IMG/VR virus record: IMGVR_UViG_3300034375_010007
Coordinates: 17,490 to 81,489 of that record
Length of the DNA: 64,000 nucleotides
Direction: 5' to 3' (one strand)
Source of the DNA: a virus
Part shown: one piece after another, positions 46,041-53,647 of the stretch
Position numbering within the stretch: the first letter of the stretch is position 1
How the letters are laid out: every line of letters starts with the position of its first letter
Position numbers and translations under genes: made by a program
The notes under the pieces: generated by a model
What the model was told of the DNA's origin: nothing
Databases searched by the model: none
The model's input: only the letters and a program-made list of their open reading frames with translations

Positions 46041-47102
46041 ATGGCTACTACTTTCAAAACTTTAAATGCAAAAGACGTAATTTCTACGAGGAATCTTCTT
46101 CATGAGGCCATTCCTATTACCGGACAGATTGTGTCTGGAACTTACAGTGATCTAAATATTAAAAACTTTTCTCACGGGATCTTCCAGTCAGTTTACGATT
46201 ATCCTTACCTTAGCTCCTCAGCGAACCATATTTTTGATCTAACGGCTGGCTATGCAGCCACTTCTTCTTTGGCCGGCGCCGGCAATGTGCAGAATGCCAA
46301 AAAGATTAACATTTATAATCAGATGGCTCAAGTATTGGTCGGGTTTGATGAGAACAATGATATTAGACGATTCGATGAAGATGGAAACCTAACAGATGGC
46401 GGTACAAAAATTGATGAAGCTTACTTCTTTAACTTTACTCGACTTCTCACAAAGGATGAGGTAAAGAAAGGATCGTTCACACTTGAGCTTGGAGTTAATG
46501 CGACATACGGCAGCCCCTTCTCATCCCGAGTTACTCTTAAGGATAGCGATGGAACGACATCATACAAGGTAAACTCTCCTGCGGGCGAGTACGGAATCTT
46601 GTATGTTTCTAACAGTGCCGGCACCCCATTGAATGGAATCACTGGCTCCACGCAGCAACCCGCAGGTTTGATTTATTATCAGGCTGGTGTTGCAGTTATT
46701 ACCGGTTCTGTTTTTGGTTCCTTGCTTAGCTCATCTGTACAAATGAATTCTGCAGGTGATGATGTTAACGACATCTTGACTGGCTCGGCAATCTCAGGAA
46801 ACTGTGATGATATAAGACATAGAGTTTACGATCTTTCGTTTAACAACTCTGTCGAACTAAATTCAACAGTATATTTCTGTAGAGCAAACCACAATGAGTT
46901 TAACTATTCTGCGAACCCAACGTACTTAAGTGCTAGTAAGCTAGTTGTTAAGAATGATTCTGCGGACGTTCCAGTATCTTATGCTACCACCGTTGGTTTA
47001 TACTCGCCAGATAACGAATTGTTGGCCGTTGCTAAGTTGTCAGAGCCTCTTAAGAAAGATCCGACGACAGAGTTTACAGTTCGCGTAAGACTAGATTACT
47101 AA
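46041..47102 (+). CDS. Virion structural protein, paralogue of next gene
   Basis: A 353-aa protein. The C-terminal ~60 residues (VYFCRANHNEFNYSANPTYL ... VGLYSPDNELLAVAKLSEPL ... FTVRVRLDY) match the end of the next protein (ANAPKGELNHSNNPSFL ... VGIYDDEKNLIGIAKVATPV ... FTFKIKLDI). Centrally, FFNFTRLLTKDEVKKGSFTLEL corresponds to the next protein's SQIKKGSVNLEFYYTG. Function unknown; likely a tail or head-completion part. Confidence 0.62.
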   Translation: MATTFKTLNAKDVISTRNLLHEAIPITGQIVSGTYSDLNIKNFSHGIFQSVYDYPYLSSSANHIFDLTAGYAATSSLAGAGNVQNAKKINIYNQMAQVLVGFDENNDIRRFDEDGNLTDGGTKIDEAYFFNFTRLLTKDEVKKGSFTLELGVNATYGSPFSSRVTLKDSDGTTSYKVNSPAGEYGILYVSNSAGTPLNGITGSTQQPAGLIYYQAGVAVITGSVFGSLLSSSVQMNSAGDDVNDILTGSAISGNCDDIRHRVYDLSFNNSVELNSTVYFCRANHNEFNYSANPTYLSASKLVVKNDSADVPVSYATTVGLYSPDNELLAVAKLSEPLKKDPTTEFTVRVRLDY

Positions 47103-47120
47103 TAATGTTATGGGCGTTAA

Positions 47121-48398
47121 ATGTCTTTTTACAAGTTTAACAGGAATGATGTATTCACCAATACACTAAAATTATATCCAGAAGTTAAATTTGTAATTTA
47201 TAGTGGCTCGGCTTACTACAACAATACGCCTAATATCTCTGGAGCGTTTGCGAATCCAATTAGGCTTACAGACGCCGGTAACGTTTCCTTATATGAGTTA
47301 AATGTCGACCGTGCTGAGTCTTCTACCGGAAGGACAATTGGCCCAGATGGTATTGAAGATCGCGGAATTATATATCCTTGGATTGTTAAAGACGGTTCCC
47401 GACTAAACTTTAGAACAAGTACATCTGAAGCTTTTAATTTAAAAAATCCTGGCGACATCATTACTGGCAGTCTGTATCCTTACACAGCCTCGATATCTAA
47501 AGAGTATTATTCCGCGACGGACGCTAGGTTTGTTGCAGCCGTCATAAGCCAGTCAGTAACAGGACCTACAATCACAAGCAACGGATCTGTCTCAAATCTC
47601 CGCGCTCTTAAGAATACCATCAATTATTACAGAAACATATCTCCTCATTTTGAGTATTCTTCTTCTGCTGATTCGGTAACTGCCGGAATACACAATAGAG
47701 ATTTTGATAGCTCTTCATTGGGTTTGGTTTCTATGCCAAGCATATTCTATGGTAGCCAAATAAAGAAGGGCTCTGTAAATCTAGAGTTTTACTACACCGG
47801 GTCTCTTATCGCCCGCGCGCAGGATATCAGAAGAAACGGAGAATTAGTACAGACCTACGGAACCTCCTCTTTGTCAGGTTCGGTAATTGGCTTGGTTTTG
47901 TACAATGAAGGGTTCGTAATTCTAACAAGTTCAGTAGATCTCTCGGTAAATCAGGATTATTATACTAGCTCAGTTGGTTTAAGCACTACAAACTGGACTT
48001 ACTTTGGGCAATCCATTTCTGGTTCCATAATAGCGCCTAACTCTTCATTTAACATGATAATGAGTGGCACAACCAATACGCAAGTAATTACAATGTTTGC
48101 AAACGCCCCTAAAGGCGAACTAAACCACTCCAATAATCCATCGTTCTTAACTAACGGCGCCGAGACTCTAATTTCAACTGGCTCATTTGGATATATTGAA
48201 AGTGATACTATTGAAGTCAAAAACATCGTTAGCTCTTCGTATCCCGACCCGACCGGATCGTTCGAGAAAACAACATACATCTCAAAGGTCGGTATCTATG
48301 ACGACGAGAAGAACTTGATTGGTATAGCTAAGGTTGCAACTCCTGTAAAGAAAACCGCTGAACGCGACTTCACATTTAAGATCAAGCTTGACATCTGA
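47121..48398 (+). CDS. Virion structural protein, paralogue of previous gene
   Basis: A 425-aa protein sharing the core and C-terminal domain of the preceding one (SQIKKGSVNLEFYYTG; GLVLYNEGFVILTSS compared with GLIYYQAGVAVITGS; VGIYDDEKNLIGIAK). The N-terminus is different (MSFYKFNRNDVFTNTLKLYP). A tandem duplication followed by divergence is the simplest explanation. It ends 12 bases before the resolvase gene, where structural genes give way to DNA metabolism. Confidence 0.62.
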   Translation: MSFYKFNRNDVFTNTLKLYPEVKFVIYSGSAYYNNTPNISGAFANPIRLTDAGNVSLYELNVDRAESSTGRTIGPDGIEDRGIIYPWIVKDGSRLNFRTSTSEAFNLKNPGDIITGSLYPYTASISKEYYSATDARFVAAVISQSVTGPTITSNGSVSNLRALKNTINYYRNISPHFEYSSSADSVTAGIHNRDFDSSSLGLVSMPSIFYGSQIKKGSVNLEFYYTGSLIARAQDIRRNGELVQTYGTSSLSGSVIGLVLYNEGFVILTSSVDLSVNQDYYTSSVGLSTTNWTYFGQSISGSIIAPNSSFNMIMSGTTNTQVITMFANAPKGELNHSNNPSFLTNGAETLISTGSFGYIESDTIEVKNIVSSSYPDPTGSFEKTTYISKVGIYDDEKNLIGIAKVATPVKKTAERDFTFKIKLDI

Positions 48399-49867: not shown

Positions 49868-50185
49868 ATGAAACTTATATTAGAAAACTTTAAAAAGTTT
49901 ATCAACGAAGAGGAAGACGCTATGCGCGGCTCCGATCGCCTAGGCGCGGACATTGAAGGCGTTCCACAGCCAGAAGGTGAAGAGCCAATCGATGTTCTTA
50001 TGGATGTGAAGACACGCCTAGCAGGTATGAGCGATGAAGAGTTGATGCAGTTAGCCGCAGACTTAGACGGCGATATGGTTACAGCACTTCGCCACATCCT
50101 TTCTGATAAGATGTATGCTCCAACGGGCGACTCAGATATGCTTCCACAGATCGGTGATGATCCACGAGATCAAAGTCCTTTATAA
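49868..50185 (+). CDS. Small acidic protein with MKLI-x-EN N-terminal motif
   Basis: A 105-aa acidic protein. The first residues (MKLILENFKKFINEEED) match the start of the head-region protein at 60595 (MKLIMENWRQFSEQEGD), although the rest is unrelated. The remainder is helical and acidic (MSDEELMQLAADLDGDMVTA). A possible internal head protein or carrier of a targeting peptide; function unknown. A terminator-like hairpin follows 20 bases after the stop. Confidence 0.55.
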   Translation: MKLILENFKKFINEEEDAMRGSDRLGADIEGVPQPEGEEPIDVLMDVKTRLAGMSDEELMQLAADLDGDMVTALRHILSDKMYAPTGDSDMLPQIGDDPRDQSPL

Positions 50186-50198
50186 TCTAAAATAACAC

Positions 50199-50226
50199 TT
50201 GACTAACTCTACCGTTGGTATATACT
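50199..50226 (+). promoter_or_regulatory. Sigma70-like promoter nested in a terminator
   Basis: TTGACT at 50199-50204, a 16-base spacer and TATACT at 50221-50226. The -10 box lies in the loop of the hairpin at 50205-50238, and transcription would begin within the hairpin's 3' arm. It would drive the gp47/gp46-type genes. Confidence 0.55.
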
Positions 50227-50244
50227 GACGGTAGAGTTTTTTAT
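50205..50244 (+). terminator. Intrinsic terminator
   Basis: A perfect 11-bp stem (AACTCTACCGT/ACGGTAGAGTT, 50205-50215 with 50228-50238) closing a 12-base loop, followed by a T run. It would end transcripts coming from the primase region. It is the clearest intrinsic terminator in the window. Confidence 0.75.
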
Positions 50245-50256
50245 TAGGAGTAAATC

Positions 50257-50922
50257 TTGGGATACAAATTTGGACACGTGAGTGACACACACGTGCGGAA
50301 CCTAAAATACCACTACGAATATCGTGTAGTCTTTGAGCAGCTCTATCAAAAACTACGCGACGAGAAGGTAGACTACATTATCCATACTGGCGATATCGCC
50401 CACACAAAGACACAAATCTCACCAGAGTTTGTAGATCTGTGTTCTGATTTTTTCAGAAATCTTGCGGCAATCGCACCGACATACGTGATACTTGGAAACC
50501 ATGATTGCAACCTAAAGAATAATAGCCGACAGGACGCTCTGTCGCCCATTGTAAGCGCTTTGAACCTCCCTAACCTTCACCTACTCAAAGATGCGGGCGA
50601 AACCGTTCTAAGAAGCGATCTAGCGCTAAATGTTTTGTCTCGTACAGACGAGGAGAACTGGGTTGCTCCAAGCGATCAATCACGCATCAATATTGCTTTG
50701 TATCACGGTGCTATTGGTGGTGTCTCAACTGACGTTGGTTGGGTCATGGACCACGGCGATCATGACATCGGAGTATTTGCCGGCCATGATTATGCGATGC
50801 TTGGAGATATCCACAAAACAAATCAGGTAGTTCAGTCAAAATGGAAAGAAGAGATCGTTGATGAAAAAGATCTTGATAAATACCTTGAAGACGGTTGGGA
50901 GATAGTAGAAGAAATCGTATAA
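50257..50922 (+). CDS. gp47/SbcD-like nuclease, N-terminal part only
   Basis: The metallophosphoesterase domain of the recombination nuclease gp47 (SbcD/Mre11 family), 221 aa starting at TTG 50257 with AGGAG upstream. Phosphoesterase motifs are complete: HVSDTH (about residue 7), HTGDIAH (about 44), LGNHDCN (about 81), LYHGAIGG (about 150) and AGHDYAMLGDIHK (about 175). After HKTNQVV the family continues with a YPGST-x-QQN segment, but here the frame leaves homology, runs through KDLDKYLEDGWEIVEEIV and hits two successive TAA stops. The missing part is found at the start of the gene at 51056. It may still work as one half of a split enzyme. Confidence 0.85.
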   Translation: MGYKFGHVSDTHVRNLKYHYEYRVVFEQLYQKLRDEKVDYIIHTGDIAHTKTQISPEFVDLCSDFFRNLAAIAPTYVILGNHDCNLKNNSRQDALSPIVSALNLPNLHLLKDAGETVLRSDLALNVLSRTDEENWVAPSDQSRINIALYHGAIGGVSTDVGWVMDHGDHDIGVFAGHDYAMLGDIHKTNQVVQSKWKEEIVDEKDLDKYLEDGWEIVEEIV

Positions 50923-50925
50923 TAA

Positions 50926-51078
50926 CAATGCTTTTATGGATGGTTGAATAATATACCGGAAGAGATTATTGCGGACATTTCTAACTTGCGTTTTATACCC
51001 GGTCGTGATAATCTAGCAAAAAGTTCCAAACACGAAGGAAAACTTTGGAGATCAGATGACGAAGAAATACAAGATTAG
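50926..51078 (+). pseudogene. Possible homing-endonuclease remnant inside gp47
   Basis: Directly after the two stops of the gp47 N-terminal frame, the same frame stays open for 50 codons (from 50926 to TAG 51076-51078). The translation contains GWLNNIPEEIIADISNLRF and IPGRDNLAKSSKHEG, resembling the end of phage HNH-type homing endonucleases (N-L-x-x-(I/L)-x-x-x-x-N-x-x-K). The residues just before the stops (KDLDKYLEDGWEI) resemble the modular NUMOD-like segments of such enzymes. No full HNH motif remains. The identification is an inference from short patterns. Confidence 0.38.
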
Positions 51079-53647
51079 AAAAGCACAATGCCTCGCGATT
51101 TATCCAGGGAGCACTGTTCAGCAGAATCACGGCGAAACCAATGATAAAGGATTCTTAACTTGGGAAATTCGTAGTAAAGATGACTTTACTGTCAAACATC
51201 ACGTTCTCCTAAACCCCAAGCCTTTCGTTACTATTGAACTAACACCAAAGGGTCGGATGCCAAAGGGCACAAATATTCCTTCTGGTGCGCGTCTGCGTCT
51301 TGTAAGTAATAACAATCTACCTCTAGACGTAATGCGCAAGGCTGTTGAGGTTGCAAAGTCTCGCTTCAAGCCTGAATCAATCTCGTTCCTAAACAGAGCA
51401 GCCGGCGAAAGAGGTGAGATTAGTCTTAGAAAGAACTTCAAGATTGAGAACTTGCGAGATGTAGCAGTTCAGGAAGAACATATTCGTGAGTATCTACAAG
51501 ATTACGAGCCTTCTGAGACTGTGTTACAGAAGGTTTATGAACTAAACCGTAAGTATAACTCTCACATTGAAGAGAATGAAGACATTGCGAGAAACGTAAA
51601 CTGGAATATCAACCGCTTTGAGTGGGACAATCTGTTCAACTACGGTGAAGACAACACTCTTGACTTTACAAATCTCAACGGTATTGTCGGGATCTTTGGA
51701 AAGAACTATTCAGGCAAGTCATCTGTTATTGATGGAATGCTTTACACTATGTTCAATACAACGTCAAAGAACGAGCGCAAGAACTATAACATCATCAATC
51801 AAAACAAAAAGAACTGCACTGGTACGATAGAGCTTCAGATTGGCGAGAAGACTTATACCATTGAGAGAAAGTCAGAGAAGTATGTAAAGCGCCTCAAGGG
51901 TGTGGAAACTAATGAGGCCAGAACATTCTTGGACTTTACACAGGACGGTGATTTAAGTCTCAACGGCACAACCCGTAACGAAACTGATGCCAACATTCGC
52001 AAGCAGTTTGGCACGATTGAAGACTTTTTGCTAACGTCTATGGCTAGTCAGCTTGATTCTTTGAGCTTTATTAAGGAAGGGTCTACAAAACGTAAGGAGA
52101 TTCTTGCTAAGTTCTTGGATTTAGAGATCTTTGAGAAGAAGTTTAAGCTAGCAAAGGAGGACTCTTCTGATCTAAAAGCTGTCCTGCGACGTATCGGTGA
52201 CGTAGACTATGATAAAGATATAGCAATTGCGGAGGTTCATTGCGAAGAAGCACAGAAGGAACTACAAGCTGACACCGAAAGATGCGATGCAATACGTCTA
52301 CAGTTGGCTCAAAACGAGCAAATACATAGCGATTTGACTGAACAGATTGATTCAATCCCGACTGAGCGTCTAAACATCAAGAAGCTGGTTGAGAGAAGAA
52401 CACAGTTAACCAACAATATCGAGGACACAAAGGAAAACATTTCTGAACTTAAACTTGAAATCTCGGAGTTTGATGACAAGCTTAAGACTTACGATGATTT
52501 CTTGACAACGATCAACATTGAGGAGTTGCTAGAAGAGAAGAAGCAATACGACGATTTCAAGCAACGCTATGACAGCACTGTAAACCGTGCTCGTATCATG
52601 GACAACGACTACAAGACTATGTCAAAGAAGCTTACACTTCTTGATGAGGTTCCTTGCGGTAGTGCTTATGTTTCGTCTTGTAAGTTTATTAGCGATGCTC
52701 ACAGCGCTTCGTTGGAGTTGCCTCTGCTTGAGAAGACTATCGTCCAGAAGATTGAGGAAGCTAAGGGCTACAAAGAAAAGGTAGTGTCAGTTAACTCTGC
52801 CGAGATGGTTGAGTTGATTGATCGATACAATGAAACAATCATTGCGAAGAACGCTATTGAGATTGAGAAGAGAGACAACAAGGTTTCAATTGAGAAGCAG
52901 TTTGCAAAGATCAAAACGATGACCTCTGATTTGTCCGAGACAAATGAAAAGATTGCATTGTACGAGGACAACAAAGAAGCTATCCAGAACATCGAGAATC
53001 TTATTTCTTCGCGGAATGAGGTTGCCGAGATGATTGAGGCTAATAAGAGAGACATCGAAGCTTTTGAGGAAGGTCTATCAACTCATAACAGAACAATCGG
53101 TTCACTAGAGCAGAAGGTAGAGACACTTAAAGATAAAAAGCAGGAGCTACTTGATATTCGTGCCGAGTTTGCTGCTTACGATTTATTTATGCGTTGCATG
53201 CATTCCAACGGTATTGCTTACGATATTATCAAGAGAAGACTGCCTGTTATTAACGAAGAGATTGCGAAGACAATCTCAAACATTGTTGACTTTGAGGTGT
53301 TCTTCCAAGAGTCAGGCAACAAGTTGGATGTGCTTATCAAGCATCCCAATTACGAAGCACGTCCCATTGAGATGGGTTCAGGCGCCGAGAAGACTCTAGC
53401 ATCAATGGGTATACGTTTGGCGCTTCTATCTGTGTCGTCGTTGCCGAAGGGTAACATCTTTATTCTAGACGAGCCAGGAACAGCTTTGGACGCAGAGAAT
53501 ATGGAAGGCTTTATTCGGATGCTTGATCTAGTTAAAACGTATTTCAAGACAGTCATTCTTATTTCTCACTTGGATTCTCTAAAAGATATCGTTGATATGG
53601 AGATTACAATTGAGAAGGACAAGGGATACGCGAGGATTAACCAATGA
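51056..53647 (+). CDS. Fusion: gp47 C-terminal domain + gp46/SbcC-like ATPase
   Basis: An 863-aa protein with two parts. Residues about 5-180 are the C-terminal half of gp47/SbcD (CLAIYPGSTVQQNHGETNDK, GFLTWEI, then the capping domain). From about residue 186 it is gp46/SbcC/Rad50: NRFEWDNLFNYGEDNTLDF, Walker A GIFGKNYSGKSS (about 213-224), long coiled coils (about 380-700) with a Cys-containing hook (VPCGSAYVSSCKF), the ABC signature MGSGAEKTLASMG and Walker B IFILDEPGTALD. GGAG seven bases upstream supports ATG 51056. With the nuclease half at 50257 it would form the end-processing complex for recombination-dependent replication. Confidence 0.88.
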   Translation: MTKKYKIRKAQCLAIYPGSTVQQNHGETNDKGFLTWEIRSKDDFTVKHHVLLNPKPFVTIELTPKGRMPKGTNIPSGARLRLVSNNNLPLDVMRKAVEVAKSRFKPESISFLNRAAGERGEISLRKNFKIENLRDVAVQEEHIREYLQDYEPSETVLQKVYELNRKYNSHIEENEDIARNVNWNINRFEWDNLFNYGEDNTLDFTNLNGIVGIFGKNYSGKSSVIDGMLYTMFNTTSKNERKNYNIINQNKKNCTGTIELQIGEKTYTIERKSEKYVKRLKGVETNEARTFLDFTQDGDLSLNGTTRNETDANIRKQFGTIEDFLLTSMASQLDSLSFIKEGSTKRKEILAKFLDLEIFEKKFKLAKEDSSDLKAVLRRIGDVDYDKDIAIAEVHCEEAQKELQADTERCDAIRLQLAQNEQIHSDLTEQIDSIPTERLNIKKLVERRTQLTNNIEDTKENISELKLEISEFDDKLKTYDDFLTTINIEELLEEKKQYDDFKQRYDSTVNRARIMDNDYKTMSKKLTLLDEVPCGSAYVSSCKFISDAHSASLELPLLEKTIVQKIEEAKGYKEKVVSVNSAEMVELIDRYNETIIAKNAIEIEKRDNKVSIEKQFAKIKTMTSDLSETNEKIALYEDNKEAIQNIENLISSRNEVAEMIEANKRDIEAFEEGLSTHNRTIGSLEQKVETLKDKKQELLDIRAEFAAYDLFMRCMHSNGIAYDIIKRRLPVINEEIAKTISNIVDFEVFFQESGNKLDVLIKHPNYEARPIEMGSGAEKTLASMGIRLALLSVSSLPKGNIFILDEPGTALDAENMEGFIRMLDLVKTYFKTVILISHLDSLKDIVDMEITIEKDKGYARINQ

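What the first reader, a model, noticed from the sequence alone, without database searches (positions are those of the whole stretch)
50257..53647. Split gp47 whose C-terminal half is fused to gp46
The SbcD/gp47 phosphoesterase stops after HKTNQVV. Its continuing segment (IYPGST-x-QQNHGETNDKGFL) starts the next gene and runs in frame into gp46/SbcC (P-loop at about residue 215). Normally these are two separate intact proteins. The layout implies that an ancestor had one gp47-gp46 fusion, later split within gp47. The nuclease domain would then be a free protein that must join the capping domain carried by the ATPase.
Basis: partly seen in the sequence, partly recalled or inferred. Interest (0 to 1): 0.72.

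Follow-up and report, generated by a model that had tools for sequence, protein, structure and literature searches.

The report
Split phage repair nuclease, conserved tails
In this phage a single DNA-repair protein (Mre11/SbcD nuclease fused to Rad50/SbcC ATPase) has been cut in two by a homing-endonuclease gene of which only a stub is left, and unrelated phages are cut at the same loop and carry the same matching protein tails, probably a clasp that lets the halves reassemble.

Summary
All 73 IMG/VR relatives with both halves on the contig have one uninterrupted gp47-gp46 fusion ORF. The window alone among them is split, at the beta-hairpin just after the catalytic GDIH motif. ORF1 does not stop at HKTNQVV: it adds a 29-aa tail (QSKWKEEIVDEKDLDKYLEDGWEIVEEIV). 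A 154-nt insert relative to the 98%-identical L001 then supplies a stop, the last ~40 codons of an HNH homing-endonuclease-like gene (phrog_5104), and a Shine-Dalgarno plus ATG for ORF2. Four very distant phages (35-46% identity) are split at the same hairpin with homologous tails. One has an intact nuclease gene in the gap, one has a nuclease gene cut by the contig end, and two have none. L001/L002 have both tails joined in frame. The window lineage sits inside a tail-less fused clade, so its tail and split were acquired. Best reading: homing endonucleases repeatedly split this gene, and the tails (predicted beta-alpha-beta plus one beta strand) act as a clasp. Fusion and homing-endonuclease splitting are each known; the recurrent site and conserved complementary tails are new to me. 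Reassembly is inferred, not shown.

The parts
50257..50832 (+). gp47/SbcD N-half: metallophosphoesterase core with all catalytic motifs (DTH, TGDIAH, GNHD, YHGA, GDIHK); TTG start preceded by TTAGGAG
50833..50922 (+). C-terminal tail of N-half (QSKWKEEIVDEKDLDKYLEDGWEIVEEIV) and stop; homologous tails end the N-halves in L099, L189, L190, L196
50916..51069 (+). 154-nt insert relative to L001/L002 (boundaries +/- ~8 nt because of GAAGAAAT at both ends, 50908-50915 and 51061-51068)
50929..51078 (+). Remnant of an HNH homing-endonuclease-like gene (C-terminal ~40 codons, phrog_5104 169-208/228 E=1.3e-6); upstream LDH half of the catalytic motif is missing; no other copy in the 81-kb record
51044..51058 (+). 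Shine-Dalgarno TTTGGAG and ATG of ORF2, lying in the 3' end of the remnant
51056..51100 (+). N-terminal head of C-half (MTKKYKIRKAQCLAI), compare DKYRVKRVWPEA in L099, MVKLKRKNPAL in L189, MEKKKIKIKKIIPI in L190
51101..51595 (+). Rest of gp47: last core strands (YPGSTVQQNHGE), capping region, predicted Rad50-binding helix-loop-helix
51596..53647 (+). gp46/SbcC ATPase (Walker A residue 215, CGSAYVSSC hook-like motif 534, signature GSGAEK 774, Walker B FILDEPG 802), fused in frame to gp47 C-part

Best explanation
The phage inherited a single-chain gp47-gp46 (Mre11-Rad50) fusion. A free-standing HNH-type homing endonuclease invaded the DNA coding for the conserved GDIH...GSTVQQN segment of gp47 and split the gene in two. 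In this lineage the endonuclease gene has since decayed to a 154-nt stub that still ends the first half and gives the second half a ribosome-binding site and start codon. The two halves are translated separately from one message and re-form the nuclease non-covalently. The N-half tail (predicted beta-alpha-beta) and the C-half head (one beta strand) extend the split beta-hairpin and act as a clasp. The tails came with the split, by homing or recombination from another phage lineage, because the nearest unsplit relatives lack them. Shown here: fusion ancestry, the split, the endonuclease-like remnant, recurrence of the split and tails in distant phages, and acquisition within a tail-less clade. 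Inferred: separate translation, clasp function, retained nuclease activity, and homing as the transfer route.
For: Fused ancestor: 73/73 relatives fused; Mel-JY01, LR756501, phiLo and PAU also carry fusions. Remnant: 48-aa translation matches phrog_5104 at E=1.3e-6 and Acinetobacter phage 133 Acj133p227 at 67% over 33 aa; that gene itself sits inside a split rnlA, and its relatives sit sporadically between gp18 and gp19. Recurrence: LR756508 is split at the same hairpin by an intact 305-aa Zn-ribbon/TnsA-like nuclease gene; L196 has the tail followed by an HNH-family gene cut by the contig end; L189 and L190 keep split and tails without any nuclease gene. Tails: ungapped similarity window vs LR756508 score 65, shuffled mean 28, 0/5000; tails as conserved (35-59%) as the catalytic core (35-50%) between split lineages. 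Window + L001 nested at 99/97 support in a clade of 24 otherwise tail-less fused relatives. AF2 of the natural tail-joined L001 puts strands 197-200, 215-218, 221-224 and helix 203-211 in the hairpin, pLDDT ~72-80, Mre11 fold. Purifying selection: window-L001 dN/dS 0.04-0.08 for both halves.
Against: No reads, expression or protein data. L001/L002, the closest relatives, work with one chain, so the split could be recent and harmful. dN/dS includes time before the split. AF2 confidence at the tails is moderate and no complex could be modelled. The window's remnant and the LR756508/L196 nuclease genes belong to different families, so one homing element did not make all the splits. The insert could instead have gone into an L001-like joined form.
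Confidence: 0.72

Rival explanations
1. The hairpin mini-domain is an older insertion in gp47 (as in L001) and merely a tolerant site; the split in the window is a recent degenerative mutation caused by insertion of a gene fragment, with the nuclease half lost or non-functional.
For: L001/L002 have the 31-residue segment in one open frame; the window differs mainly by the 154 nt.
Against: Outside L001/L002 the tail is always found at a split; the window C-half shares KY[KR][IV][KR][RK] with LR756508, which L001 lacks; both ORFs are intact with low dN/dS, and ORF2 has a proper SD and ATG.
Confidence: 0.17
2. A group I intron, bypass element or programmed frameshift restores one full-length protein.
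For: Insert length is not a multiple of 3 and lies in a functionally critical gene, as for phage introns; L189 has GGGAAAAAG before the stop.
Against: No Rfam intron match at E<=5; 154 nt is short for a group I intron; the N-half tail is conserved as protein, with own stop codons and downstream ATGs; L189 and L190 gaps are 2 and 4 nt with different frame offsets.
Confidence: 0.04
3. Assembly artefact: the metagenomic contig joined two strains, one carrying an endonuclease gene, and made a false split.
For: Single 81-kb IMG/VR record, reads not available; 8-nt repeat GAAGAAAT at both junctions.
Against: Similar splits with the same tails in four other assemblies; the junction leaves an intact stop, SD and start.
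Confidence: 0.05

Closest known systems
Aeh1 nrdA-a/mobE/nrdA-b, T4 60/mobA/39 and gene 43A/43B split genes (reviewed in PMC2988022)
   Same: Homing-endonuclease insertion in a critical, conserved region of a phage DNA-metabolism gene gives two ORFs whose products must reassemble; split NrdA and gp43 are reported active.
   Different: Here the target is a gp47-gp46 fusion, the endonuclease is mostly gone, and homologous complementary tails recur at the same site in several divergent phages with different or no endonucleases.
Mre11/Rad50 fusion proteins of Mimivirus R555, Bacillus phage 0305phi8-36 and aquatic viral metagenomes (PMC3175470)
   Same: Same domain order: phosphoesterase, cap, HLH, then Rad50 ATPase on one chain.
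   Different: The window's fusion is cut inside the phosphoesterase domain; splitting is not described there ('split' does not occur in that text).
Split rnlA of Acinetobacter phage 133 with Acj133p227
   Same: Same endonuclease family (phrog_5104) as the window's remnant, sitting between the halves of a split gene and overlapping the start of the second half.
   Different: The endonuclease gene is intact there; rnlA-A shows no YLxxGW tail.
Split mitochondrial cox2 of green algae and alveolates (cited in PMC5374615)
   Same: Unique C-terminal and N-terminal extensions on the two halves proposed to mediate reassembly.
   Different: Different protein and organisms; no sequence relation.
Fractured genes with split inteins (Dassa et al. 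2009; known from a citation and from memory, paper not held)
   Same: Gene cut in two with a free-standing endonuclease between the halves.
   Different: No intein sequence in the tails by Pfam; reassembly would be non-covalent.

Membership tests
Mre11/SbcD (gp47) nuclease | Five phosphoesterase motifs DxH, GD, GNHD, H, GHxH | tested here: met
   DTH10, GDIAH45, GNHD80, YHG149, GDIH183 (Asp in place of the first His of GHxH), invariant in A7
Mre11/SbcD (gp47) nuclease | Nuclease, cap and Rad50-binding HLH on one chain | tested here: not met
   Chain is cut after GDIHKTNQVV plus tail; remaining strands, cap and HLH are on ORF2
Rad50/SbcC (gp46) ATPase | Walker A, signature motif, Walker B, coiled coil with hook cysteines | tested here: met
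   phrog_77 7.5e-57; motifs at ORF2 215, 774, 802; CX7C at 534
Free-standing HNH homing endonuclease | Intact ORF with complete H-N-H/K catalytic motif | tested here: not met
   Only the C-terminal half (N..N..K positions) remains; LDH half absent: a remnant, not a member in working form
HEG-split 'genes-in-pieces' | Host gene intact in relatives, interrupted by an endonuclease gene, halves in separate ORFs | tested here: met
   endonuclease only as remnant here, nuclease genes present in L099 (intact) and L196 (cut by contig end)
HEG-split 'genes-in-pieces' | Two products reassemble into active enzyme | not testable with these tools
   needs expression and assay
Group I intron | Conserved catalytic core detectable by covariance model | tested here: not met
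   Rfam scan of 50000-52000 at E<=5: no intron family
Split intein | Intein N and C sequence blocks in the tails | tested here: not met
   no Pfam match for the tails; no catalytic Cys/Ser at the junction

The most novel reading that the evidence does not exclude
A class of mobile elements that splits a host gene but brings its own protein clasp: the cassette [N-tail - endonuclease - C-head] homes into the gp47 hairpin of different phages, and the paired tails restore function without an intron or intein; after the endonuclease decays, the split either persists (L189, L190, window) or is rejoined in frame as a scar (L001).
Probability: 0.35. Interest if true: 0.85.

Novelty: new variant of a known kind. 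Interest (0 to 1): 0.62.

Why it matters
How products of endonuclease-split phage genes find each other has been named an open question (PMC2988022). Here is a natural series at one site: unsplit without tails, unsplit with joined tails, split with nuclease gene, split with its remnant, split without it. The conserved complementary tails give a direct, deletable candidate for the docking device. The case would also show an enzyme tolerating a cut inside its catalytic fold, and a second route, besides introns and inteins, by which a homing element can live in an essential gene.

Tried and rejected
Exact-pattern scan with the insert end gave 8 unrelated contigs. tblastn of the tails alone against phage records found nothing except LR756508 itself. 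Tail against Pfam and PDB: nothing significant; weak PHROG hits phrog_1175/14884/1378 (E 0.006-0.06), all small proteins of unknown function, not used. Genome-collection scan with the tail alignment: no relative. IMG/VR scan with the LR756508 N-half: none. Regex for V..L..YL..GW in all 187 loci held at that point: only gp47 tails looked alike, so the tail is not a general companion of phrog_5104 genes. Imperfect 25-nt repeat around the insert: 151/2000 shuffles as good under strict scoring, 7/2000 under loose, so only the 8-nt GAAGAAAT repeat is relied on. The sigma-70-like site inside the insert is at chance level. I considered that L189 might be a sequencing frameshift; its frame offset differs from L190 and the ATG is well placed, so a true split is preferred. 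Intron, bypass and intein were considered and rejected. The Friedrich 2007 and Dassa 2009 papers are not held.

Full report
OBSERVATION. The window is 64 kb of an 81-kb IMG/VR virus record, a large tailed phage with primase, RuvC-like, terminase and portal genes. ORF 50257-50922 is the gp47/SbcD phosphoesterase and ORF 51056-53647 carries the gp47 continuation fused to gp46/SbcC.

ANCESTRY. Of 80 close IMG/VR relatives, 73 contain both parts, and in all 73 they are in one open frame. Seventy-one have a short hairpin (HKTNQILDTEGRVRYCGSTVQQN and the like). More distant fusions occur in Microcystis phage Mel-JY01, a 735-kb uncultured phage, Thermus phage phiLo and Sphingomonas phage PAU. Mre11-Rad50 fusions in viruses are known (PMC3175470). 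So the fused form is ancestral and the split derived.

WHAT SPLIT IT. L001 and L002, near-identical to each other and with a 98% identical C-half, are fused but carry a 93-nt in-frame addition at the hairpin: VVQSKWKEEIVDEKDLDKYLEDGWEIVEENKIRKAQCLAIYPGST. The window has the same addition plus 154 nt between ...GWEIVEE and KIRK..., bounded on both sides by GAAGAAAT (50908-50915, 51061-51068). The 154 nt contains the stop of ORF1, a 36-48 aa stretch that matches the C-terminus of phrog_5104 (E=1.3e-6), and TTTGGAG-5 nt-ATG for ORF2. phrog_5104 members carry an HNH-type motif (LDH...N...N..K), occur sporadically between gp18 and gp19 of T4-like phages, and in Acinetobacter phage 133 lie inside a split rnlA. 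One member matches a homing-endonuclease family over its N-terminal part (phrog_3339, E=4.9e-7). The window keeps only the C-terminal part, lacking the LDH half of the motif; there is no other copy in the record. It is therefore a remnant of a homing-endonuclease-like gene.

RECURRENCE. In LR756508 (484-kb uncultured phage, gp47 core 36% identical to the window) gp47 is split at the same hairpin. The N-half ends HKRQKVSEYEVEEMVVEEDELEKYLNSGWKLDENLDDY; next comes an intact 305-aa gene with zinc ribbons (phrog_1271, HNH endonuclease) and a TnsA-like nuclease domain (PF08722, above cut-off); then MFMSDDKYRVKRVWPEAVFSGSLIQQNHGE..., gp47-C fused to gp46. L196 ends its N-half with QEYSYEELEVDESELDKYLSEGWEII and is followed by a gene matching the same phrog_1271 region, cut by the contig end. 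L189 ends with SSEWFEDIEVDESEVETYLQQGWEKA and restarts 2 nt later with MVKLKRKNPALWYVGSLVQQNFGE, no nuclease gene. L190 ends with LHQETLEIYEDDLSKYMEMGWEIDND and restarts 4 nt later with a short C-half (MEKKKIKIKKIIPICYSGS...); its gp46 is separate and seems to carry an intein in the P-loop. Tail similarity window-LR756508 beats 5000/5000 shuffles. Across the five split lineages the tails are about as conserved as the catalytic core (35-59% vs 35-50%).

PHYLOGENY. In a maximum-likelihood tree of the N-halves the window and L001 pair (100/99) inside a strongly supported clade of 26 rows (99/97) whose other members are fused and tail-less; LR756508, L189, L190 and L196 fall outside it. Their order among themselves is unresolved. 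So the tail and split were acquired in the window's lineage rather than inherited. Homing with its flanks is the simplest route, but plain recombination is not excluded. I read L001 as a rejoined derivative: loss of the interrupting DNA between the GAAGAAA repeats and one base restores the frame, and the window C-head, not L001, shares KY[KR][IV][KR][RK] with LR756508. The opposite order is possible.

STRUCTURE. AF2 of L001 residues 1-415 (47-row alignment, mean pLDDT 79) gives the Mre11/SbcD fold (Foldseek 2e-12 to T. maritima Mre11). In the added segment it predicts beta 197-200, alpha 203-211, beta 215-218 (N-tail) and beta 221-224 (C-head), pLDDT about 72-80. With the window's ORF1 alone residues 194-200 turn helical and only one tail strand remains, as expected if the C-head strand is needed, though this is weak evidence. 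All metal-ligand motifs are in ORF1; the last core strands, cap and HLH are in ORF2. The two products must therefore associate to complete the domain; the tails are the obvious candidate for extra interface.

FUNCTION. Both halves show strong purifying selection against L001 (dN/dS 0.04-0.08), no internal stops, and good start signals. The nuclease part differs more from L001 (dS 0.76) than the tail (0.08) or ORF2 (0.23), so a recombination boundary lies near the split, as expected of a homing or conversion tract. Most likely the two proteins reassemble into a working recombination nuclease, as shown by others for split NrdA and gp43 (PMC2988022). This step is inference.

VERDICT. Real, derived, and caused by a homing-endonuclease-like gene; known in kind. 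The new part is the repeated use of one split site with homologous complementary tails in unrelated phages, in all stages of endonuclease presence, decay and absence. I found no description of it in the held literature, which lacks most subscription journals.

Noticed in passing
L190:6894-9695: gp46 of this contig seems to carry an intein inserted in the Walker A motif (GKCLRENTDITI...VSHNTT), in the same operon whose gp47 is split.
   Followed up: no
window 50205-50238: Strong terminator-like hairpin (15 pairs, T-rich tail) directly upstream of gp47 ORF1, so ORF1 and ORF2 probably form their own transcription unit.
   Followed up: no
window 50895-50923: Promoter-like TTGGGA-17-TATAAT overlaps the tail and stop of ORF1 (10/12), at chance frequency for the region; could be an extra start for ORF2.
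   Followed up: no
L093:570-1691: A phrog_5104-type nuclease ORF lies next to a ClpA-like gene that ends at a Walker A motif followed by an intein-like start (GVPGCVTGGTKIKIRRR).
   Followed up: no
L090:4019-6096: Acinetobacter phage 133 rnlA is split by Acj133p227, whose 3' end overlaps the start of rnlA-B, the same layout as inferred for the window's remnant.
   Followed up: partly
window 46041-48398: Two adjacent ORFs (353 and 425 aa) resemble each other in layout and end in a similar motif (LAVAKLSEPLKKDPTTEFTVRVRLDY / IGIAKVATPVKKTAERDFTFKIKLDI); L189 has a similar ORF near its primase.
   Followed up: no
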